Part shown: positions 1,108-12,966 of the stretch, one piece after another
How positions within the stretch are numbered: the first letter of the stretch is position 1
How the letters are laid out: each line of letters begins with the position of its first letter
Assembly: GCA_043820025.1 (NCBI GenBank)
Contig: JBDRED010000008.1
Coordinates: 1-12,966, forward strand
Direction: 5' to 3'
DNA length: 12,966 nt
Origin: JBDRED01 sp043820025 [NCBI: Elusimicrobiota bacterium]
Lineage (GTDB): Bacteria > RUG730 > JBDRED01
Notes under the pieces: model-generated
What the model saw: only the letters and a program-made list of their open reading frames with translations
The model's database searches: none
Told to the model about the DNA's origin: nothing
Program-made: the position numbers and the translations under genes

Positions 1108-1785
1108 ATGGCGAAGTTTATCGTAATAGTTGATGATGAGAAAGATATTGTATCACTTGTTACTATTAATTTGGAAAAGAGCGGATTTGACGCAAAAGGA
1201 TTTACAGATGTTAAGCCATTTTGGGAATTTTTAAAGAAGAAAAAACCTGATTTGATAATATTAGATCTTATGCTTCCGGAATCTGATGGGTTTGATATAT
1301 GTAAAAAGTTAAAGGCTGACATTAGGTTAAAGGATATTCCAATAATTATGCTCACTGCCAGAGGCGATGAGATAGACAAAGTCTTAGGATTGGAACTGGG
1401 AGCGGATGATTATGTAACAAAACCTTTTTCAGTAAAAGAGCTCATAGCCAGAGTTAAAAATATTACAAAACGATATGAAATATCATCTGAAAATGTTGAA
1501 ATTATTGATGAGGATTTTGTTTTAGATAATGATAGGCATGAGGTTATACTTAAGGGTAAAAAGATAGACCTTACTACATCTGAATTTAAGATATTACAGC
1601 TCTTGGCTTCTAAAAAGGGCCATGTTTTATCGCGAGACAGAATTCTCGAACATTTATGGGGCGATGACAAAATCGTTATTGACCGGACTGTGGATTTTCA
1701 TGTTAAGAATCTAAGAGAAAAGTTAGGGAAATATGGTAAATTAGTAAAGAATATCAGAGGAGTGGGTTATAAACTGGAAGTATGA
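1108..1785 (+). CDS. phoB: PhoB-type response regulator (OmpR/PhoB family)
   Basis: This is a 225-residue DNA-binding response regulator. The receiver domain (about 3-118) has the acidic pocket D9-D10, phospho-acceptor D53 in I-L-D-L-M-L-P, switch residue T83, and K105 in T-K-P-F. The C-terminal winged helix (about 128-225) has the typical L-T-T-S-E-F-K-I-L segment, the D-R-T-V-D-F-H-V recognition-helix region and the closing R-G-V-G-Y-K-L. Length and order match PhoB. AGGAG (about 1095-1099) precedes ATG 1108 by about 8 bases. The stop overlaps the kinase start in ATGA, so the two are translationally coupled. The name phoB rests on the PhoR-like partner and the adjoining pst genes; the regulator domains alone would only say OmpR family. 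Its probable target is the phased-repeat promoter at 3517-3570. Confidence 0.9.
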   Translation: MAKFIVIVDDEKDIVSLVTINLEKSGFDAKGFTDVKPFWEFLKKKKPDLIILDLMLPESDGFDICKKLKADIRLKDIPIIMLTARGDEIDKVLGLELGADDYVTKPFSVKELIARVKNITKRYEISSENVEIIDEDFVLDNDRHEVILKGKKIDLTTSEFKILQLLASKKGHVLSRDRILEHLWGDDKIVIDRTVDFHVKNLREKLGKYGKLVKNIRGVGYKLEV

Positions 1786-3503: not shown

Positions 3504-3516
3504 TCAAATTTAAAAA

Positions 3517-3570
3517 CTAACACAATACTAACACAAGGCTTATATTAATCTAACTTATTTATTTTATACT
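3517..3570 (+). promoter_or_regulatory. Pho-box array and -10 element of the porin-pst promoter
   Basis: Four hexamers start exactly 11 bases apart: CTAACA (3517), CTAACA (3528), CTTATA (3539) and CTAACT (3550). The first two 11-mers agree at 9 of 11 positions. A -10 element TATACT lies at 3565-3570, about 9 bases after the last hexamer, and no separate -35 is evident. PhoB/PhoP boxes are known to be direct repeats of about 7 bases at 11-bp spacing that replace or overlap the -35. CTAACA resembles the Bacillus PhoP half site (TTAACA-like) as well as the enteric CTGTCA. Binding by this PhoB is inferred from architecture and from the porin-pst genes downstream. Confidence 0.72.
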
Positions 3571-3608
3571 TAATCATGAAATTATTTTTTGAGGAGGTGC
3601 GTAAAAAA

Positions 3609-3656
3609 ATGAAAAAGATTAATTCTGAAAAAATTCAAGGAGGAATAAATGTTTAG
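3609..3656 (+). CDS. Possible 15-residue leader peptide overlapping the porin start
   Basis: A short frame starts at ATG 3609 and ends at TAG 3654-3656, encoding MKKINSEKIQGGINV. It is preceded by an almost ideal ribosome site, GAGGAGGTG (3591-3599), with AGGAGG 11 bases before the ATG. The porin ribosome site AAGGAGG (3637-3643) lies inside this frame, and the porin ATG (3649) overlaps its last codons. Ribosomes finishing the peptide would therefore stop within reach of the porin start. The same frame is open back to ATG 3576, but that start has no ribosome site and sits at the predicted transcript end. The peptide has no recognisable family and no attenuator hairpin is seen; it may only serve coupling. 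Confidence 0.4.
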   Translation: MKKINSEKIQGGINV

Positions 3657-4857
3657 AAAATTATTTGCAGGAAGTTTAATTTGTTTAACGACTGTATCTT
3701 TTGCCGGAGCAGGTGAGATTGATTTATTGGTGCAAAAGTTAATGGAAAAAAATGTATTAACAGGGGGCGAAGCACAACAGATAATTACTATTACTAATGA
3801 AAACGTCAGAAAGGAGATTGCTAAAGGCGAGTCAAAGAGCGCGCCTGCATGGTCGCAGAATGTTAAGCTTTCCGGTGATTTGCGGTTGAGATATCAGAGA
3901 GAAGATAAAGGGAATAATTACTGGCGTGATAGAGTAAGATTAAGGGCAAGGTTAAAAGCTGAAGGGAAGGTTAATGATAAAGCAATGATTGTTATGGGCT
4001 TAGCAAGCGGATCAACTGATCCCAGGTCAACAAATCAAACTTTTGAGAAAACATTTGAGACAAAAGGGATACAATTGGACTATGCATATCTTCAATATGC
4101 GCTTCCTTGCGGCAGTCATTTGTTTGGCGGTAAATTTCCCGTGAAGTCAATAATATGGACTCCATCTGATTTGATGTGGGATGGGGATATAACGCTGGAA
4201 GGCTTTGGTTTTAGTAAGGACGGAAAAATCGGCGGGACAGAGGTATTTCTTAATGCAGGATATTTAATAGTAGAGCATCTGGGCGCTAGCGGAAACGCGA
4301 CTATGATTATTCTTCAGCCGGGTTTCAGCGCAGGACTAACAGATACAATTTCTTTAAAATTAGCGGGCTCTATTTATAATTTCGATAATATTAAAGGAAG
4401 AAACCTGACATATTCCGCGGGAACAAATACAGTGGATCTGACAAAAGGCGGGCTTAAGTATAATTTTAACTGCCTAAGCCTTGGTTTTGAGTTGTCATTT
4501 GCGGAACTATTTACTCAAAAATTTACTCTGTTTTCGGAGATGGTTACAAATCCTGATCCAGGTAAGAGTAACCAAGGATTTTTAGGCGGAGTAAAATTCG
4601 GATGCGCGAAAGTTGCAAACTTAGGCGATTGGCAGGTAAAGGCAATGTATAGAGAACTGCAAGCTGATGCTTGGATAGACGCGTTTCCGGATTCAGATGC
4701 TTTGGAGGGTGACACGGATAATCAAGGAATAGAGATCTCCGGCGAATATGGAATTGGCAAAGGAATGTATATAGGTCTTGATTACTACAATATAGGTAAT
4801 GTCGGAGAGAGTAATGGAAAAAGTTTGGCGCAGATAGATATAGGAGCAAAATTTTAA
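3649..4857 (+). CDS. Outer-membrane porin (putative-porin family), probably for phosphate-limited growth
   Basis: This is a 402-residue exported protein. A signal peptide covers residues 1 to about 21 (charged R3-K4, hydrophobic core, cleavage near F-A-G-A). A short helical segment follows (about 23-55, including L-L-V-Q-K-L-M-E-K-N-V-L-T), as in many beta-barrel proteins of the putative-porin (Porin_5-like) group. From about residue 70 (V-K-L-S-G-D-L-R-L-R-Y) alternating polar and hydrophobic strands run to the end. The last residues are A-Q-I-D-I-G-A-K-F, with the terminal Phe recognised by the outer-membrane assembly machinery. AAGGAGG (3637-3643) is 5 bases before ATG 3649. It is the first main gene after the Pho-type promoter and 15 bases before pstS, so it probably lets phosphate cross the outer membrane, a role like OprP or PhoE without evident homology to them. 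Ion selectivity cannot be read from the sequence. Confidence 0.82.
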   Translation: MFRKLFAGSLICLTTVSFAGAGEIDLLVQKLMEKNVLTGGEAQQIITITNENVRKEIAKGESKSAPAWSQNVKLSGDLRLRYQREDKGNNYWRDRVRLRARLKAEGKVNDKAMIVMGLASGSTDPRSTNQTFEKTFETKGIQLDYAYLQYALPCGSHLFGGKFPVKSIIWTPSDLMWDGDITLEGFGFSKDGKIGGTEVFLNAGYLIVEHLGASGNATMIILQPGFSAGLTDTISLKLAGSIYNFDNIKGRNLTYSAGTNTVDLTKGGLKYNFNCLSLGFELSFAELFTQKFTLFSEMVTNPDPGKSNQGFLGGVKFGCAKVANLGDWQVKAMYRELQADAWIDAFPDSDALEGDTDNQGIEISGEYGIGKGMYIGLDYYNIGNVGESNGKSLAQIDIGAKF

Positions 4858-5746: not shown

Positions 5747-5769
5747 CTATATTTAGAAAAGGATTGTTT

Positions 5770-6672
5770 ATGATTGCAAAACATATGCTTAGAAATATTA
5801 AGGAAGAAATTTATAAATATATTTTTATGGCCATTGCATTTTCTTCGCTGATTTTTTTATTTGGCATTATTATTGTTTTATTTAAGAATGGTATTCCATT
5901 ATTTAAGGATTTTAGCATATCTTCTGTGCTGTTTGGAAAGTATTGGTATCCGACGTATGAGCCGGCAGAATTTGGCATGCTTCCTCTTATTCTAGGTTCA
6001 TTATGGATAACGATTGGCGCATTGTTTGTTTGTGTTCCGCTTGGCGTGGGATCAGCGTTGTATATCCATGAAATCGCGTCCTACAGACAGAGAATGTGGC
6101 TGAAGCCTTCAATAGAAATATTAGCTGCTGTGCCTTCGATTGTTTATGGTTTTTTTGGAATGGTTATTGTTGCTCCTTTCCTGCAAAAATTATTTGGAAT
6201 ACCTGTAGGATTATGCGCTTTTACAGCCAGCTTAATACTTGGCGTTATGGCAACGCCTACGGTTTGCAGTATAACAGAGGATGCGTTGGGATATGTGCCA
6301 AAAACATTTAAGGAAGCGTCGCTTGCTATAGGCGCTAATAGGTGGCAGACGCTTGTTCATGTTGTCATCCCGGCCGCGGGTTCAGGAATTTCAACAGCAA
6401 TTATTTTGGGTATTAGCAGGGCAATAGGCGAGACAATGACAGTGCTCATGGTAGCCGGCGGCGCTGCTGTTATTCCAAAATCTTTTTTTCAGCCGGTCAG
6501 GCCTATGACAGCAACTATCGCTGCTGAAATGGGAGAAGCTGTAGTCGGAAGCGGCCATTTCCATGCTCTTTTTAGTATTGGTTTAATACTTTTTTTAACA
6601 ACGCTCGTTTTTAATGTTATAGCTGAGATCATAAGTAAAAAATACAGATTAAAACTTGGATTCGGGAGATAA
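5770..6672 (+). CDS. pstC: Phosphate ABC transporter permease PstC
   Basis: This 300-residue inner-membrane subunit forms the phosphate channel with PstA. A first membrane segment lies near residues 16-38. A periplasmic stretch of about 40 residues follows (containing F-G-K-Y-W-Y-P-T-Y-E-P), then about five further segments. The cytoplasmic coupling loop that contacts PstB is E-A-S-L-A-I-G-A-N-R-W-Q-T, starting at residue 182. Motifs A-A-V-P-S-I-V-Y-G-F-F-G and A-I-G-E-T-M-T-V are typical of PstC. Its length is normal. ATG 5770 is chosen because AAAAGG (5757-5762) stands 7 bases upstream; TTG 5764, two codons earlier, is a worse start. The gene follows the pstS hairpin and precedes pstA by 7 bases. 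I see no convincing promoter of its own, so it probably depends on read-through from the Pho promoter. Confidence 0.94.
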   Translation: MIAKHMLRNIKEEIYKYIFMAIAFSSLIFLFGIIIVLFKNGIPLFKDFSISSVLFGKYWYPTYEPAEFGMLPLILGSLWITIGALFVCVPLGVGSALYIHEIASYRQRMWLKPSIEILAAVPSIVYGFFGMVIVAPFLQKLFGIPVGLCAFTASLILGVMATPTVCSITEDALGYVPKTFKEASLAIGANRWQTLVHVVIPAAGSGISTAIILGISRAIGETMTVLMVAGGAAVIPKSFFQPVRPMTATIAAEMGEAVVGSGHFHALFSIGLILFLTTLVFNVIAEIISKKYRLKLGFGR

Positions 6673-6679
6673 GTTATTT

Positions 6680-7552
6680 ATGAAAACTAGTACTAGTAAT
6701 AGAAATAGTGGAAAATTAATAGAGAAAATCGGGTTTTCATTGCTATTTGTATGCGCGTTAATTACTGTTTTATTTCTTGGAACTATTCTATATTTTATTT
6801 TTACGCGAGGTATCGGAATATTATCATGGCAATTTTTGACTGAAGCGCCAAGAATGTCAATGACTCAGGGCGGAATAGCGCCCGCAATCGTTGGAACATT
6901 ATATTTGACTCTGGGCGCTATTATCACAGCTTTACCTCTTGGCGTCGCGTGTTCAATATATTTATGCGAATATTCGCCGAGAGGATTTATTATCAATGCG
7001 GTCAGAATGGGAATCAATAATCTTGCCGGTGTGCCGTCTGTTGTTTTCGGACTTTTTGGATTAGCTGTTTTTGTTAAGTTCTTTGGATTTGGAGTTTCAA
7101 TTCTTGCCGGTAGTTTAACTTTGGGAATAATGGTTTTGCCCGGAATAATTTCTGCCTCACAAGAGGCTCTGCAGGCTGTGCCGCACTCAATAAGAGAGGC
7201 GTCGCTGGCTCTGGGCGCGACTAAATGGCAGACAATTAAAAGAATAGTGCTGCCGCACGCTCTTCCCGGTATTCTTACCGGAGTTATATTGGCTATTGGA
7301 AGAGCCGCAGGTGAAACAGCGCCTATTCTCTTTACAGCAGCGACATTTTATCGTCGAGGATATCCAACATCTATATTTTCTGAGGTTATGGCTTTGCCAT
7401 ATCATATTTACGCGCTTATGACAGAAGGAACTTATCCTGAAAAGCAGACCCGGATAGCTTACGGAAGCGCGTTGATATTACTTGCTATTGTGTTATTTAT
7501 TTCTGCGTTTGCGATTTATTTGAGGCATAGACAGAGAAAGTTTTTTCACTAG
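6680..7552 (+). CDS. pstA: Phosphate ABC transporter permease PstA
   Basis: This 290-residue inner-membrane partner of PstC has a first membrane segment at about residues 15-40. A short periplasmic loop with F-L-T-E-A-P-R-M-S-M-T-Q-G-G-I-A-P-A-I-V-G-T-L, characteristic of PstA, comes next. Five further hydrophobic segments and the coupling motif E-A-S-L-A-L-G-A-T-K-W-Q-T (from residue 173) follow. G-R-A-A-G-E-T-A-P-I-L-F-T-A-A is the conserved PstA end motif. ATG 6680 is preferred with GGGAG (6664-6668) 11 bases upstream; the frame is open to TTG 6656 inside pstC, but that would add only eight atypical residues. Spacing is 7 bases after pstC and 15 before pstB. The PstC and PstA coupling motifs are similar, as expected for the heterodimer. 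Confidence 0.94.
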   Translation: MKTSTSNRNSGKLIEKIGFSLLFVCALITVLFLGTILYFIFTRGIGILSWQFLTEAPRMSMTQGGIAPAIVGTLYLTLGAIITALPLGVACSIYLCEYSPRGFIINAVRMGINNLAGVPSVVFGLFGLAVFVKFFGFGVSILAGSLTLGIMVLPGIISASQEALQAVPHSIREASLALGATKWQTIKRIVLPHALPGILTGVILAIGRAAGETAPILFTAATFYRRGYPTSIFSEVMALPYHIYALMTEGTYPEKQTRIAYGSALILLAIVLFISAFAIYLRHRQRKFFH

Positions 7553-7567
7553 GGTATGGAGGTTAGA

Positions 7568-8329
7568 ATGGGAAATGATATTCGAATAAAGGTTGAAAAT
7601 ATAGATTTTTATTACGGAGACGCGCATATTTTAAAAGGACTTAGCCTTGATATTTATACAAATAAGGTTACTGCTGTTATAGGCCCTTCCGGATGCGGAA
7701 AATCTACATTTATACGGCTTTTTAACAGGATGAATGACCTTGCGCAAAATGGCAGGCTAAAAGGCAGGATTCTTTTAGACAATAAAGATATAAATCTTGA
7801 AAAGGTAGATGTTGTTGATATAAGGCGGCGTATTGGTATGGTTTTTCAGAAACCTAACCCATTCCCCAAAAGTATATTTGAAAATTTGGCTTATGGATTA
7901 AAGATAAATGGTATTAAAGATAAATCAATTATTGAAGAGCGGATAGTAGGGTCGCTGAAAGACGCTGCGTTATGGGAAGAGGTAAAGGACAGACTGCATG
8001 ACAGCGCTTTGGCTTTATCAGGCGGGCAGCAGCAAAGGCTCTGTATTGCGAGATGCCTGGCTGTCGAGCCTGAAGTAATTTTATTTGACGAACCCTGCGC
8101 GAGTTTGGATCCGATCTCTACGAAGAAAATTGAGGCGCTTATTGAACAGCTTAAATCAAAATATACAATAGTTATTGTAACGCATAATATGCAGCAAGCG
8201 GCTCGAGTCTCTGATTTTACAGCTTTTCTTTATTTAGGAAATTTAATAGAGTATGGGCCAACTCAGAATATTTTTACAATCCCGAGGGATAAGAGGACGG
8301 AAGATTATATAACAGGAAAATTTGGATAA
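7568..8329 (+). CDS. pstB: Phosphate ABC transporter ATP-binding protein PstB
   Basis: This 253-residue ATPase drives phosphate import. All nucleotide-binding elements are present: Walker [10 protein letters not shown] (39-47), Q-loop Q94 in [10 protein letters not shown], signature L-S-G-G-Q-Q-Q-R (150-157), Walker B with D174-E175 in V-I-L-F-D-E-P, D-loop S-L-D-P (179-182) and switch H206 in V-T-H-N-M-Q-Q-A. The [10 protein letters not shown] segment and [12 protein letters not shown] are specific to PstB among ABC ATPases. ATG 7568 fits best, with GGAGG (7558-7562) 5 bases before it. An in-frame ATG at 7556 would add four residues but has only a weak ribosome site and would bury the better one. 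It lies between pstA and phoU. Confidence 0.96.
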
Positions 8330-8341
8330 TAGGAGGCGCGA

Positions 8342-9001
8342 ATGTTAGAAAAGAGAATTATTGATCTAAAAAAGGATTTGGTAGAGTATGCTAATTTGGT
8401 CGAGAGCATGATAAAAAATGCTGTAAATGGTTATCTGACTAAAAATACTATTCTGTTAAAATCGATTATTGATGTGACAGAGCCTAAGACAAATCAGTTT
8501 GAACTTGATATTGAAGAATTATGTACTTCGGCCATTGCTAAGTTTGACCCAAAAGCTGTGGATTTAAGGACAATACTTATGATTTTAAAAATGAATAATG
8601 ACTTAGAGAGAATAGCAGATCATGCTGTTAATATTTCTGAGAGCGCGATATTCATTATTGAAAACTCAGGATTGGAATTTAAAGCAGACTTAACAGGCGC
8701 AGCAACTGTTGTAAGTAGTATGCTGCATGATACTATTACAGCGTTTATTAATGAGGATACTAATCTTGCAAAGGCAGTTTGCCGAGAAGATAATAAGGTG
8801 GATAGCTTTAGGCTGGAGACAATAAAAGAAATGGTTAAGGATATGAGTGAAAATCCTAATATTGTCGAGAAATGCCTTCATTTTCTTAGAATTTCAAGTA
8901 ACTTGGAAAGGATGGCTGACCTTTGCACTAACATGTCAGAGGATGTAGTGTTTATGGTTGAGGGCAAAATAATTAAACATCATGGCAAGGATGCGTCTTA
9001 A
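8342..9001 (+). CDS. phoU: Phosphate signalling protein PhoU
   Basis: This 219-residue cytoplasmic all-helical protein normally links Pst transport state to PhoR and keeps the pho regulon off when phosphate is plentiful. It shows the two-fold PhoU repeat: the first half has N86-D-L-E-R-I-A-D93-H-A and the second N187-L-E-R-M-A-D193-L-C-T-N, about 100 residues apart. These acidic motifs bind metal clusters in known PhoU proteins. In the second copy the usual His after A-D is replaced by Leu-Cys, a mild departure. AGGAGG (8331-8336) lies 5 bases before ATG 8342, and the gap after pstB is 12 bases. It is the last gene of the pst block. No clear terminator follows in the 98-base gap before the antiporter. 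Confidence 0.93.
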   Translation: MLEKRIIDLKKDLVEYANLVESMIKNAVNGYLTKNTILLKSIIDVTEPKTNQFELDIEELCTSAIAKFDPKAVDLRTILMILKMNNDLERIADHAVNISESAIFIIENSGLEFKADLTGAATVVSSMLHDTITAFINEDTNLAKAVCREDNKVDSFRLETIKEMVKDMSENPNIVEKCLHFLRISSNLERMADLCTNMSEDVVFMVEGKIIKHHGKDAS

Positions 9002-9065: not shown

Positions 9066-9099
9066 CAGTACTTAATCCCTAAAAATGCAGGTCAAAATT

Positions 9100-11271
9100 A
9101 TGAAACTATTTTTCATTGTATTATCAATTTTTATTACCTCGCCTAGTCTCCTGTTTTCTGCTGAAACTGCGGGCCATGAAGATACTCTAATAAGCCAGAT
9201 GGCATTGATAGTGTTCCAGCTGAGTTTTATTCTTTTTGCCGCGTGGCTTGGCGGTACATTGTTTTCTAAAATGAGACTGCCTGCTGTTCTTGGCGAAATC
9301 ATTGCAGGTGTTATTATAGGGCCATATTTTTTAGGTCATATTCATATGCCCGGCTTTTCTGATGGCTTATTTCCTCTTATAGAAGGACAGTTTCCTGTGT
9401 CTGCGGCGTTGTACGCGTTTACTACTATCGCATCAATAATATTATTATTCTTAGTGGGTATTGAAACTGATATTAGAACATTTTTTAAATTTTCTTTTGC
9501 AGGGTCAATATTAGGTACCGGAGGTGTTATAGCCAGCTTTGCCTGCGGCGATTATGTAGCTGTACTATTATCCCCGGCATTGTTTGGTTATAAGATTAAT
9601 TTCAGCCATCCTGTAGCTTTGTTTCTTGGAGTTATTTCTGTGGCAACTTCAGTCGGTATCACTGCGCGAATACTTTCCGAAAAAAGAAAGATGGATTCTC
9701 CGGAAGGAGTGACAATACTATCAGCTGCTGTTGTCGACGACGTTCTTGGTATTATTGTGTTAGCCATTATTGTTGGTATTGTAAAAAGCGGTCACATTGA
9801 ATGGAAACAAGTCACAATGATAGGCCTTAAAGCGATTGGTATCTGGCTGGGATTTACCATTGCCGGGTTGATTTTCTCTTATAATTTAAGCAGGTTGTTA
9901 AAGAAAGCAAAGGATAGAGCTACTATATCAATTCTTAGTTTTGCTTTAGCGTTGTTTTTAGCCGGTATATTTGAAAAATCTGGACTTGCTATGATCATTG
10001 GCGCCTACATAATGGGATTATCACTTTCTAAGACGGATTTAGCGTTTATAATACAAGACAATCTCTCAGCGCTAGAGAGGTTTTTTGTGCCAATTTTCTT
10101 TTGCGTTATGGGTATGCTTGTAGATGTAAGAAGTATTACTTCTTTGACTATTGTTAAGTTTGGTTTGATTTACACCGGATTTGCTGTTCTTGGTAAAATT
10201 ATTGGATGCGGACTGCCCGCGCTGCTGCTTAATTTTAATTTACGCGGCGCTATAAGAATAGGCGTTGGTATGATACCACGAGGAGAAGTAGCTCTAATTA
10301 TTATGGGTATAGGTCTTACTGCCGGCATTCTTACGCCAGAGTTATTCAGTATAGCTGTTATTATGACTTTTCTTACTACGCTTATTACGCCGCCAATATT
10401 AGCAAAACTGTTTGAGTCGCATGAATCAGGATTAAGGAAAGCTGCAGGTGTTGATAAAGAACATAGGGAAGTTAGATATAAAATGCCAAATCCGGAAACA
10501 TCTGAACTTATTTTAGCTAAAGTATTAGATGCTTTTGATAGTGAAGGGTTTTATGTTCATAGAATGGAAATAACGGATAAAATTTATCAGATTAGAAAAG
10601 AAGAAACTTTTATTACCCTGCGTTATAATGAAGAGGAGTTTGCTTTTAATTGTGCAGTAGAGGACGAGTCTTTTATTCATACATTATTTTATGAAGTTTT
10701 AGCTGACATGGAATATCTTATTAAACATTTAAAGAATTTAGCTGATACGGAAAAGGTAGGCGAGAAAATACTTGTTTCACGAGATGAAAGTAAGAAAGAT
10801 AAAATTGATATAGCTGAAATTATAAGCCCCTTGGCAGTAAATGTGAATCTTAAGTCGAATAATAAAACCGATATAATTGCTGAATTGATAGATCTATTAA
10901 TTAAAGCAGGCCAACTGAATCATTCTAAACGCGACGAAGTTGTTAAGGATGTTACAGAACGCGAAATGACGATGTCTACAGGCCTGCAAAAAGGTATTGC
11001 TTTCCCTCATGCAAAAACTCTTGCGGTTGATAATATTGTTGTTGCGATTGGCGTAAAAAAAGGCGGGATTGATTTTGATTCGCTAGATAAAAAACCATCA
11101 AGTATTTTTGTTATAACCTTATCCCCTAAGGAATCTCCAAAACCTTATCTTCAGTTTATGGCTGAATTGACAAAGGTGCTTACGTATCCGGGTAACATAG
11201 AAAAGATACTTGACTGTGACTCTAATCAATACCTGTATAAATTATTAACTGCAAGAAAATCTAAGATCTAA
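9100..11271 (+). CDS. CPA2-type cation:proton antiporter with C-terminal PTS EIIA domain
   Basis: This is a 723-residue fusion protein. Residues 1-22 look like a signal peptide or an extra first membrane segment (M-K-L-F-F-I-V-L start, L-L-F-S-A end). Residues about 30-440 form the Na+/H+ exchanger membrane domain, with R-L-P-A-V-L-G-E-I-I-A-G near the start and the ion-binding D213-D214 in V-V-D-D-V-L-G; an Asp pair is usual in electrogenic antiporters. Residues about 455-560 are a charged soluble domain I do not recognise. Residues about 569-718 are a type-2 EIIA (PtsN-like) domain with phosphorylatable H637 in G-I-A-F-P-H-A-K, preceded by T-G-L-Q-K. The EIIA part could gate the transporter through phosphorylation by a PTS phosphocarrier not seen here; the cation is unknown. 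ATG 9100 gives the signal-like N-terminus; ATG 9085 is in frame five codons earlier, and both have weak ribosome sites. Confidence 0.88.
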   Translation: MKLFFIVLSIFITSPSLLFSAETAGHEDTLISQMALIVFQLSFILFAAWLGGTLFSKMRLPAVLGEIIAGVIIGPYFLGHIHMPGFSDGLFPLIEGQFPVSAALYAFTTIASIILLFLVGIETDIRTFFKFSFAGSILGTGGVIASFACGDYVAVLLSPALFGYKINFSHPVALFLGVISVATSVGITARILSEKRKMDSPEGVTILSAAVVDDVLGIIVLAIIVGIVKSGHIEWKQVTMIGLKAIGIWLGFTIAGLIFSYNLSRLLKKAKDRATISILSFALALFLAGIFEKSGLAMIIGAYIMGLSLSKTDLAFIIQDNLSALERFFVPIFFCVMGMLVDVRSITSLTIVKFGLIYTGFAVLGKIIGCGLPALLLNFNLRGAIRIGVGMIPRGEVALIIMGIGLTAGILTPELFSIAVIMTFLTTLITPPILAKLFESHESGLRKAAGVDKEHREVRYKMPNPETSELILAKVLDAFDSEGFYVHRMEITDKIYQIRKEETFITLRYNEEEFAFNCAVEDESFIHTLFYEVLADMEYLIKHLKNLADTEKVGEKILVSRDESKKDKIDIAEIISPLAVNVNLKSNNKTDIIAELIDLLIKAGQLNHSKRDEVVKDVTEREMTMSTGLQKGIAFPHAKTLAVDNIVVAIGVKKGGIDFDSLDKKPSSIFVITLSPKESPKPYLQFMAELTKVLTYPGNIEKILDCDSNQYLYKLLTARKSKI

Positions 11272-11498: not shown

Positions 11499-11618
11499 AT
11501 GCAGGGAATAAAGCAGACTTCGAAAAAAAATATTTCCAGTTTTTCATTTCCTCTTAATTACATGAGAAACATTCAAAAATCATTTTTGAATGATAAAAGT
11601 ACTAGAGGGGAGTTATGA
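11499..11618 (+). CDS. Possible 39-residue protein coupled to the surface-protein gene
   Basis: ATG 11499 opens a frame of 39 codons ending at TGA 11616-11618, which overlaps the next ATG (11615) in ATGA. A strong ribosome site, GGGAGGGAGG (11487-11496), precedes it with one GGAGG 6 bases from the ATG. The peptide is basic and rich in Ser, Lys and Asn (starts M-Q-G-I-K-Q-T-S-K-K). It has no membrane segment, signal peptide or recognisable family. The frame is open back to about 11388, but that part runs through the operator and promoter region and is unlikely to be translated. The good ribosome site and stop-start overlap favour real translation, perhaps simply to feed ribosomes to the downstream gene. 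Chance cannot be excluded at this size. Confidence 0.4.
   Translation: MQGIKQTSKKNISSFSFPLNYMRNIQKSFLNDKSTRGEL
11571..11591 (+). other. AT-rich perfect hairpin just before the surface-protein start
   Basis: ATTCAAAAA (11571-11579) and TTTTTGAAT (11583-11591) form a perfect 9-bp stem with a 3-base loop (TCA). It ends 13 bases before the purine-rich ribosome site AGAGGGGAG (about 11604-11612) of the next gene and lies inside the 39-residue frame. It could modulate access to that site, but AT pairing makes it weak. Confidence 0.4.
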
Positions 11619-12966
11619 AAAAGTCGGTTCTTAGATTATTAATCCAAATATTAATTGTCTTTCAGATGACTGTCATTCTATCTGCTGACACTCCTCAAGG
11701 GAAAGTTAATTATCAAGGGCGATTGGAAAAAGACGGAGAAGTTGTTTCAGGCGTTAAAAATATTGAGTTTAAAATTTATGACACATTAACCGGTGGAAAT
11801 CTAATCTGGGTTAGCGGTCAAAGAAATGTTGAGGTTATTCAAGGATTTTTTAATTATCCATTAGGCGAAAATAATCCTTTACCAACTGCTTTATTTGGAC
11901 AGAAAGAATTGTATCTTGAGATCGTAATCGAATCTACAGTGATGACTCCTAGAGAAGAAATATTAATTCCGCCGTTTGCTATACGGGCCGGGGTTGTTGA
12001 TTGGAATAATATCGAAAATATACCGGCCGGGTTTGCTGATGGGACTGATGACGGAGGAGCTGCTTTAGGTCAGAATACTGTCGGATCTTATCAAATAATA
12101 GATGGTTCAATAACTGCAAATGATATTAAAGATGGTGAAATATTAACGAGTAAAATCGCTAATGGAGCTGTAACAGATATAAAAATTACTGATGTTGATT
12201 GGAGTAAAATAATAAATATGCCGGCCGGGTTTGCTGACGGAACTGATGATGGCAGCGCAACATTAGGCAAAGATAGTATAGGGTCATATCAAATAATTGA
12301 TTCAACAATAACAACATTAGATATTTTGAACGGTACAATAATCGATGCGGATGTTAGTAATGTTGCAGATATTGCAGCTTCAAAGCTACAATCAAATGTG
12401 ATGATAGAGGGCGAAAACGTAAGCTTACTAAACAATGACGCAGGATATTTAGCAACGATCTCAGGCGAGAATATTAGTCAGCTTACAAATGATGCAGGAT
12501 ACCTAACTTCTTTAAGCGAAATAGATCCAATATACAGCGCGTCAGCAAGTACTCAAGTAACGCAAGGCAAAATAGATAATTGGCAGAGTGCATTTGGATG
12601 GGGAAATCATGCATTAGTAGGTTACTTAACAACAATTGCAGGAGAGAACATCAGCTCACTTACAAATGACGCAAATTACATAACAATAAATGATACAGTA
12701 AGCTATGTAGCGGCAAACAGCATTGGAGCAAATCAAATAATTGACGGATCAATCACAAGCGCTGATTTAAGTTCAACAGAACCAATTTCAGTAACAAAGC
12801 TCTCTAACGTAGTAATGATTGAAGGCGAAAACGTAAGCTTACTAAACAATGACGCAGGATATTTAGCAACGATTTCAGGCGAGAATATCAGCCAATTAAC
12901 AAATGATTCAGGTTATTTATCAAGCATATACGGATTAAATGTAAGTACACTTACAAATGACGCAGG
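11615..12966 (+). CDS. Large exported repeat protein (tail-fibre-like / surface protein), 3' end outside the window
   Basis: This frame has no stop from ATG 11615 to the window end, at least 450 residues. A signal peptide covers residues 1-24 (K2-K3, hydrophobic core, cleavage after L-S-A). Residues about 26-120 form an N-terminal domain beginning G-K-V-N-Y-Q-G-R-L and including I-E-F-K-I-Y-D-T, a pattern seen at the start of many bacterial surface proteins. Two 66-residue units follow (129-194 and 195-260), each with D-W-x-K/N-I and P-A-G-F-A-D-G-T-D-D-G. Then come x-Q-I-I-D-x-x-I-T modules (159, 225, 373) and L-x-N-D-A-G-Y-L motifs at 272, 290, 349, 410, 428 and 446, often 18 residues apart. 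W-Q-S-A-F-G-W-G-N-H-A-L-V-G-Y-L (323-338) resembles phage tail-fibre repeats. The likely role is adhesion or cell-surface structure; the function is not proven. AGAGGGGAG serves as ribosome site. Confidence 0.8.
   Translation, partial: MKKSVLRLLIQILIVFQMTVILSADTPQGKVNYQGRLEKDGEVVSGVKNIEFKIYDTLTGGNLIWVSGQRNVEVIQGFFNYPLGENNPLPTALFGQKELYLEIVIESTVMTPREEILIPPFAIRAGVVDWNNIENIPAGFADGTDDGGAALGQNTVGSYQIIDGSITANDIKDGEILTSKIANGAVTDIKITDVDWSKIINMPAGFADGTDDGSATLGKDSIGSYQIIDSTITTLDILNGTIIDADVSNVADIAASKLQSNVMIEGENVSLLNNDAGYLATISGENISQLTNDAGYLTSLSEIDPIYSASASTQVTQGKIDNWQSAFGWGNHALVGYLTTIAGENISSLTNDANYITINDTVSYVAANSIGANQIIDGSITSADLSSTEPISVTKLSNVVMIEGENVSLLNNDAGYLATISGENISQLTNDSGYLSSIYGLNVSTLTNDA
11999..12394 (+). 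repeat. Two tandem 198-bp coding repeats in the surface-protein gene
   Basis: The unit starting at GAT 11999 and the next at GAT 12197 are offset by 198 bases (66 codons). Both encode D-W-(N/S)-(N/K)-I ... N-(I/M)-P-A-G-F-A-D-G-T-D-D-G and, 30 residues on, G-S-Y-Q-I-I-D. DNA identity is highest around GCCGGCCGGGTTTGCTGA and falls off later, so the duplication is moderately old. Confidence 0.75.
12398..12502 (+). repeat. 105-bp coding repeat, copy 1
   Basis: This copy recurs at 12812-12916, offset exactly 414 bases (138 codons). The core at 12410-12459 is identical to 12824-12873 over 50 bases; the rest differs mostly at third codon positions. It encodes V-M-I-E-G-E-N-V-S-L-L-N-N-D-A-G-Y-L and the following I-S-G-E-N-I-S-Q-L-T-N-D. 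The identical core implies recent duplication or gene conversion. Confidence 0.88.
12812..12916 (+). repeat. 105-bp coding repeat, copy 2
   Basis: This is the second copy of the unit at 12398-12502 (see that entry). It differs outside the 50-base identical core by mainly synonymous changes, such as CAGCTT versus CAATTA for Gln-Leu, plus one Ala-to-Ser change in D-A-G-Y to D-S-G-Y. A further partial L-T-N-D-A-G motif follows at 12950 and is cut by the window end. Confidence 0.85.

What the first reader, a model, noticed from the sequence alone, without database searches (positions are those of the whole stretch)
3517..3570. Four CTAACA-type boxes in exact 11-bp phase form an apparent Pho promoter with a non-enteric half-site
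Seen: hexamers at 3517, 3528, 3539 and 3550 (CTAACA, CTAACA, CTTATA, CTAACT), then TATACT at 3565. Known: PhoB and PhoP bind direct repeats at 11-bp spacing just upstream of the -10. Inferred: in this lineage the half site is CTAACA, between the enteric CTGTCA and Bacillus TTAACA forms. This gives a ready motif for finding the rest of the regulon.
Basis: partly seen in the sequence, partly recalled or inferred. Interest (0 to 1): 0.6.

Follow-up and report, generated by a model that had tools for sequence, protein, structure and literature searches.

The report
Phosphate-starvation promoter with four boxes
A DNA switch made of four evenly spaced binding boxes sits in front of phosphate-uptake genes in an uncultured bacterium; the same layout is kept in its relatives, so it is an ordinary phosphate-starvation promoter with locally varied letters.

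Summary
Comparison supports a Pho promoter. Upstream of 87 homologous porin-pst loci, repeat lag 11 is the strongest of 5-30, and randomly seeded motif finding recovers the same four boxes plus -10. A profile of 51 such sites has its best genome-wide hit before the porin in 19 of 20 Omnitrophota genomes. A model learned from a second phylum, without the window, picks the same register as best in the window: 14.8, next unrelated place 5.8, 0 of 300 shuffles as high.
What fails is "in this lineage the half-site is CTAACA". In 85 other sites none of boxes 1, 2 and 4 begins with C; the usual half-site is TTCACA, TTTACA or TTAACA. A model trained on those 85 sites scores the window's site no better than chance over the whole window. 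CTAAC boxes do occur in a few loci of the second phylum. Binding and induction are untested. It is a new member of a known kind.

The parts
1108..1785 (+). phoB-type response regulator (receiver + Trans_reg_C); recognition helix DRTVDFHVKNLREKL
   Evidence: Pfam PF00072 and PF00486; best-scoring NCBIfam model is PhoB TIGR02154, 225.5 bits, below its curated cut-off of 296.2; helix
1782..3503 (+). phoR-type sensor histidine kinase (sCache-like, HAMP, PAS, HisKA, HATPase)
   Evidence: PhoR model TIGR02966 294.2 bits, below its cut-off of 334.2
3517..3522 (+). Pho half-site 1, CTAACA
   Evidence: register found independently
3528..3533 (+). Pho half-site 2, CTAACA
3539..3544 (+). Pho half-site 3, CTTATA (the degenerate third site, T rather than C at position 5, as in relatives)
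   Evidence: box 3 position 5 is T in 52, A in 26, G in 5 and C in 3 of 86 sites
3550..3555 (+). Pho half-site 4, CTAACT, ending 9 bp before the -10 hexamer
3565..3570 (+). -10 hexamer TATACT
   Evidence: TATACT is the commonest hexamer at this place, 38 of 86 sites
3609..3656 (+). possible 15-codon leader ORF behind a GAGGAGGTG; its end overlaps the porin start; significance unknown
   Evidence: read by eye; reported within a 26-residue frame
3649..4857 (+). outer-membrane porin (Porin_5), first large gene of the operon
   Evidence: Pfam PF16930, 134 bits
4873..5679 (+). pstS, phosphate-binding protein
   Evidence: TIGR02136 269.9 bits, cut-off 206.6
5764..6672 (+). pstC, permease
   Evidence: TIGR02138 284.9 bits, cut-off 196.45
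6656..7552 (+). pstA, permease
   Evidence: TIGR00974 305.6 bits, cut-off 193.45
7556..8329 (+). pstB, ATPase
   Evidence: TIGR00972 393.4 bits, cut-off 343.2
8342..9001 (+). phoU
   Evidence: TIGR02135 163.7 bits, cut-off 130.25

Best explanation
This is the PhoB-dependent promoter of a porin-pstSCAB-phoU operon. Under phosphate starvation PhoR phosphorylates the adjacent PhoB, which binds the four 11-bp-spaced half-sites head to tail, probably as two tandem dimers on boxes 1-2 and 3-4. Box 4 lies in the -35 region, so PhoB stands in for a -35 element and recruits RNA polymerase to the TATACT -10; transcription starts near 3577. Shown here: the anatomy, the gene neighbourhood, conservation of layout and spacing in relatives, and that such sites rank first genome-wide before this operon. 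Inferred: binding, phosphorylation, direction of regulation, oligomer state and transcript start. CTAACA is the local spelling of a wider YTNACA half-site, not a lineage consensus.
For: Layout and genes. Lag 11 is the strongest self-similarity lag of 5-30 in 87 upstream regions (15.29; others 13.1-14.5) and in 29 regions of a second phylum (15.31; lag 22 next at 15.10). Randomly seeded EM recovers four 11-bp boxes plus -10; sites score at least 5 in 65 of 87 regions of 450 bp, while 1,840 regions shuffled in 2-base blocks reach at most 6.9 (99.9% point 5.74). Of 28 loci without such a site within 450 bp, 20 have one scoring at least 14 further upstream, 19 of these wholly outside the DNA used in training; no shuffle control was run for the longer regions. 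The profile's best genome-wide hit lies before the porin in 19 of 20 genomes, and in 11 of the 12 that gave no site to the profile; pstS downstream had been checked for 16 of the 19. A second-phylum model finds the window's site with no help from the window. In all 68 loci with phoR found upstream there is a site; it starts within 100 bp of the matched end of phoR in 59.
Against: Trained on the 85 other Omnitrophota sites, without the window, the model scores the window's site -0.4, second to a place at 11636 (-0.3); 43 of 300 whole-window shuffles reach -0.3. The earlier score of 10 owed much to the window being in the training set. The genome nearest to the window by porin and PhoB, G604, was the one of 20 without a profile hit at E 0.05, though a weaker model site of 16.0 was found there (L089). 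Neither PhoB nor PhoR passes the curated NCBIfam equivalog cut-off. In the second phylum pstS was found downstream in only 12 and phoR upstream in only 4 of 29 loci. There are no binding or expression data.
Confidence: 0.92

Rival explanations
1. One reading: CTAACA is the half-site of this lineage, a form between enteric and Bacillus sites, and defines its regulon.
For: Boxes 1 and 2 are CTAACA and box 4 is CTAACT. CTAAC boxes occur in some loci of the second phylum, such as L065, L066 and L067. PhoB proteins with the same KN helix (L236 for G604, 61% identical; L234 for G511, 54%) go with A at position 3 in box 4, and in L090 (G511) also in boxes 1 and 2.
Against: None of 85 other Omnitrophota sites has C at position 1 of boxes 1, 2 or 4. 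The sites of G604 and G511 read TTCACT/TTTATT/CTTATA/TTAACC and TTAACC/TTAACA/TTTATA/TTAATA. The window holds one such site only, and no genome of its own is held.
Confidence: 0.15
2. The repeats are bound by another OmpR-family regulator rather than by the adjacent PhoB.
For: OmpR/PhoB-family regulators in general bind direct repeats (PMC4832192, passages read). Some relatives carry a second response regulator gene beside the site (L111, L112, L115, L139).
Against: phoB and phoR directly precede the site and the pst operon follows it; this order recurs (phoR upstream found in 68 of 94 loci, pstS downstream in 89 of 94). PhoB helix types tend to go with half-site types.
Confidence: 0.06
3. Chance repeats in AT-rich intergenic DNA next to an ordinary sigma-70 promoter.
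For: The site does not stand out against the Omnitrophota consensus over the whole window.
Against. The promoter scan found no -35 partner for the TATACT at 3565.
Confidence: 0.02

Closest known systems
E. coli Pho box / pstS promoter (PhoB)
   Same: Direct repeats of 11 nt (7 better and 4 less conserved), bound head to tail, about 10 bp upstream of the -10, before pst genes (PMC4415409, PMC1906773, PMC3465305; passages read). That E. coli pstS has four half-sites with a third reading CTTACA is from recall.
   Different: The E. coli core is CTGTCAT (PMC4415409, PMC3465305, passages); here position 4 is A, and in the window position 3 of boxes 1, 2 and 4 is A.
Bacillus subtilis PhoP boxes (TTAACA type)
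   Same: 11-nt repeats (PMC4415409, passage) and TNACA core (the TTAACA consensus is recalled and is in the finding).
   Different: The window has C at position 1; many relatives have C or T at position 3.
Streptomyces PhoP repeats (GTTCACC) and cyanobacterial SphR boxes (CTTAACCT with 3-bp linker)
   Same: TTCAC and TTAAC cores at 11-nt spacing, close to the forms in Omnitrophota and the second phylum (consensus letters from passages of PMC4415409 and PMC1906773).
   Different: Other phyla; numbers of boxes and target genes were not compared here.

Membership tests
Pho box (PhoB/PhoP operator) | Tandem direct repeats at 11-nt spacing | tested here: met
Pho box (PhoB/PhoP operator) | Located about 10 bp upstream of a -10 element | tested here: met
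   Box 4 ends 9 bp before TATACT; same spacing in the motif
Pho box (PhoB/PhoP operator) | Before phosphate-acquisition genes, conserved in relatives | tested here: met
Pho box (PhoB/PhoP operator) | Bound by the phosphorylated cognate regulator | not testable with these tools
   needs gel shift or footprint
Pho box (PhoB/PhoP operator) | Responds to phosphate limitation | not testable with these tools
   needs a reporter or transcript mapping
Enteric Pho box (CTGTCAT) | T at position 4 of the half-site | tested here: not met
   A at position 4 in all four boxes of the window and in 84, 86, 83 and 86 of 86 sites for boxes 1-4
Bacillus-type box (TTAACA, consensus recalled) | T at position 1 and TNACA core | tested here: inconclusive
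   TAACA core in boxes 1 and 2, but C at position 1
PhoB equivalog (TIGR02154) | Score above the curated cut-off of 296.2 bits | tested here: not met
   225.5 bits, though it is the best-scoring NCBIfam model
PhoR equivalog (TIGR02966) | Score above the curated cut-off of 334.2 bits | tested here: not met
   294.2 bits; WalK (354.5) and PnpS (337.1) models score higher but also stay below their cut-offs of 725 and 400

The most novel reading that the evidence does not exclude
PhoB regulators of Omnitrophota fall into specificity classes readable from one recognition-helix position, the residue just before Leu-Arg: Thr goes with TTTAC half-sites (box 2: 12 of 12), Arg with TTCAC (box 2: 19 of 22), and Asn, as in the window, with A at position 3 (box 2: 2 of 3, window included). 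The window's CTAACA would then be the target of its own Asn-type PhoB, and the phylum a natural series for testing how PhoB specificity evolves. Against it: His and Lys at this position also go with C (box 2: 6 of 6), box 4 follows the rule poorly (A in 9 of 12 for Thr as well as 3 of 3 for Asn), and ancestry is not corrected for.
Probability: 0.3. Interest if true: 0.5.

Novelty: new member of a known kind. Interest (0 to 1): 0.33.

Why it matters
It extends the four-half-site Pho promoter, with a degenerate third site, to an uncultured phylum by comparison rather than by resemblance, and gives a tested profile (R1) that ranks this promoter first in 19 of 20 genomes. The same profile has a few further hits, two of them before glnA. 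The possible link between PhoB helix type and half-site type can be tested directly.

Tried and rejected
The CTWAYW pattern was dropped as a lineage motif. The first upstream scan left minus-strand loci unturned and was replaced. A closer relative of the window was sought in the order of G604 (21 of 42 genomes with a match): near-full-length porin matches reach 47%, and only partial ones are higher (58% over residues 14-150 in G793; 55% over residues 11-162 in G655 and 52% over 18-209 in G744). The porin tree puts the window beside members of that order with support of 85, below the tool's mark of 95, and an end branch of 1.32, so its place in Omnitrophota is likely but not firm. Rfam found nothing in the window.

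Papers: nine searches listed no paper on a Pho box of Omnitrophota. 'Omnitrophota' was paired with 'pho regulon' (0 papers), 'pstS' (1, PMC11066067, listing and start of abstract only) and 'PhoB' (2, of which 1 was listed, on Borrelia flagella); one search listed only 10 of 1,292 papers. Subscription journals are mostly not in that library. Passages, not whole texts, were read of PMC4415409, PMC4832192, PMC3465305, PMC1906773 and PMC3547664.

Selection: the 94 porin loci are the window, L057-L059, and 90 (L089-L178) taken from the best-scoring places downwards, leaving out matches without the N-terminal part; not all 195 genomes with a match were used. EM used 87 of them (pstS downstream and at least 150 bp upstream). 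R1 used 51 of 86 sites, chosen by me for spread. The second-phylum model used 21 of 29 regions (dropped: L063, L064, L068, L069, L071, L080, L086, L087; L069 scored well but was printed short). In one search, 43 of 86 sites had a readable helix, and for L111, L112, L115 and L139 that helix belongs to a second regulator close to the site.

Full report
Observation. Box 4 ends 9 bp before TATACT, and the promoter scan found no sigma-70 -35 partner for that -10, as expected for an activator-dependent promoter. The genes around are phoB, phoR, then porin, pstS, pstC, pstA, pstB and phoU, all on the + strand. The five pst/phoU genes pass the curated cut-offs; PhoB and PhoR are named by domain make-up, model ranking and position, because they fall below the equivalog cut-offs.

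Relatives. No genome is held for the window. A PstS scan of genome contigs found its nearest relatives in a MAG labelled Deltaproteobacteria (L001, 62% over nearly the whole protein) and in three labelled Omnitrophota (L002 and L003, 65%; L008, 69% over a part). The porin has a match in 195 of 384 Omnitrophota genomes searched and in 52 of 395 genomes of the phylum of L001's genome, which the tool leaves unnamed. The best near-full-length porin identity is 47%, and the nearest PhoB found is 61% identical (L236, genome G604).

Conservation of the layout. From 94 porin loci (89 with pstS downstream, 68 with phoR upstream) I took 87 upstream regions of up to 450 bp. Without any motif assumed, self-similarity is highest at lag 11. 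EM started from random segments converged on .A.TTCACacA.AtTTCACat..cCTTCAT.t..ttTTAACa..c...tTgTAtaCTt: four boxes in 11-bp phase and a -10 at the same distance as in the window. Sites score at least 5 in 65 of 87 regions; 1,840 regions shuffled in 2-base blocks reach at most 6.9, with a 99.9% point of 5.74. Where no site lay within 450 bp it was usually further up, with other small genes in between: 20 of 28 such loci score at least 14 in the longer region, 19 of these wholly outside the training DNA (no shuffle control for the longer regions). In all, 86 of 94 loci, and 83 of 89 with pstS, have a site of at least 8; the eight without one are L101, L119, L138, L166, L171, L172, L174 and L176, of which L119 and L176 have 70 and 104 bases upstream.

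Genome-wide rank. The 51-site profile R1, searched in 20 whole genomes, gave 38 hits at E 0.05; in 19 genomes the best hit lies before the porin homologue. Eight of the 20 genomes had given a site to the profile; of the other 12, 11 have their best hit there, and G604, the nearest to the window, had none at that threshold. The tool scored at most 150 candidates per genome. For 16 of the 19, pstS downstream had been seen; for G419, G469 and G632 it was not checked.

The window against these models. When the window is left out of training, the Omnitrophota model no longer singles out its site over the whole window (-0.4, against -0.3 at 11636; 43 of 300 shuffles as high). The scores of about 10 therefore overstate its fit. 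Limited to the intergenic stretch 3504-3648, the same model chooses 3514, with 1 of 2,000 shuffles as high. In the second phylum, EM on 29 regions (12 with pstS, 4 with phoR found) gives tTAAC..Aaa.tTAAC..t....TcAT......tTAACA, again with lag 11 strongest. A model from 21 of those sites, with no knowledge of the window, puts the window's site first at 14.8; the next is 6.3 one repeat away, then 5.8 elsewhere, and 0 of 300 shuffles reach it; a wider version is reached by 1 of 300. So the window's promoter belongs to the same design but uses a TAACA core with C in front. Phased TTAAC-type boxes were also seen upstream of pstS in L009 (labelled WOR-3) and L005 (labelled Cloacimonadota), without a control.

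The half-site. In 86 sites, boxes 1, 2 and 4 are mostly TTCACA, TTTACA/C/T, TTAACA/C or forms with G at position 1; position 4 is A in 84, 86 and 86 of 86; C at position 1 occurs in the window only. Box 3 is different: position 5 is T in 52, A in 26, G in 5 and C in 3 of 86. The window's CTTATA fits that degenerate third box. CTAAC boxes exist in the second phylum (for example L065, L066, L067), so the form is not unique, but the claim that it is the half-site of the lineage is not supported.

PhoB and half-site. In 43 of 86 loci a recognition helix could be read. The residue just before Leu-Arg tends to go with the third base of boxes 1 and 2: Thr with T (box 1, 11 of 12; box 2, 12 of 12), Arg with C (box 1, 19 of 22; box 2, 19 of 22), Asn with A (2 of 3 in each, window included). 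His and Lys also go with C (6 of 6 in each). Box 4 follows poorly: A in 3 of 3 for Asn but also in 9 of 12 for Thr, and C in 15 of 22 for Arg. Ancestry is not corrected for, so this is a lead. A review states that the Pho-box consensus varies between species with the contacts that the regulator makes (PMC4415409, passage read).

Other hits of R1. Thirteen of the 38 hits lie away from the porin. Of these I looked at eight: before glnA in two genomes (L213, L214), before a gene for a TPR-like protein in two (L210, L211), between a second phoR-like gene and pstB (L212), and three weak ones with no convincing gene (L216, L217, L218). A second response regulator follows a further site near the porin in L209. 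The other five were not looked at. Gene names here are my reading of the translations, not family searches. PhoP and GlnR compete at glnA in Streptomyces, according to the title of a paper in the reference list of PMC4415409 (that paper was not read).

Verdict. The finding is real and ordinary in kind: a PhoB-type promoter of a porin-pst operon, not found described for this lineage in nine paper searches.

Noticed in passing
L057, L105, L121, L134 and others, between the Pho promoter and the porin: A small protein of about 60-80 residues (pattern DF(I/V)ASxLRSQLxxL...ESLRxVExxLRQIRK) is encoded between promoter and porin in 42 of 83 loci by an HMM built from 15 of these sequences, two of which (L093, L108) were in a wrong frame; seeds match by construction. 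Three examples have no Pfam match above cut-off and two no NCBIfam match. The window, with 77 bases in that gap, is not among the 42.
   Followed up: partly
window 3609-3656: A possible 15-codon leader ORF with its own GAGGAGGTG, ending inside the porin start; it may be a remnant or a translational coupling device.
   Followed up: no
L213 and L214, about position 1501: Phased boxes 2-4 and TATACT before glutamine synthetase in two Omnitrophota genomes, suggesting phosphate control of nitrogen assimilation.
   Followed up: partly
L125, L126, L127, L135, L137: A stand-alone receiver-domain-like protein of about 130 residues lies between the Pho promoter and the porin in these loci (named by eye).
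   Followed up: no
window 11615-12964: Long repetitive protein with repeated GENVSLLNNDAGYL-like segments, running off the window end.
   Followed up: no
window 9085-11271: Sodium/proton exchanger domain fused to a PTS EIIA domain in one protein, the next gene after phoU.
   Followed up: no
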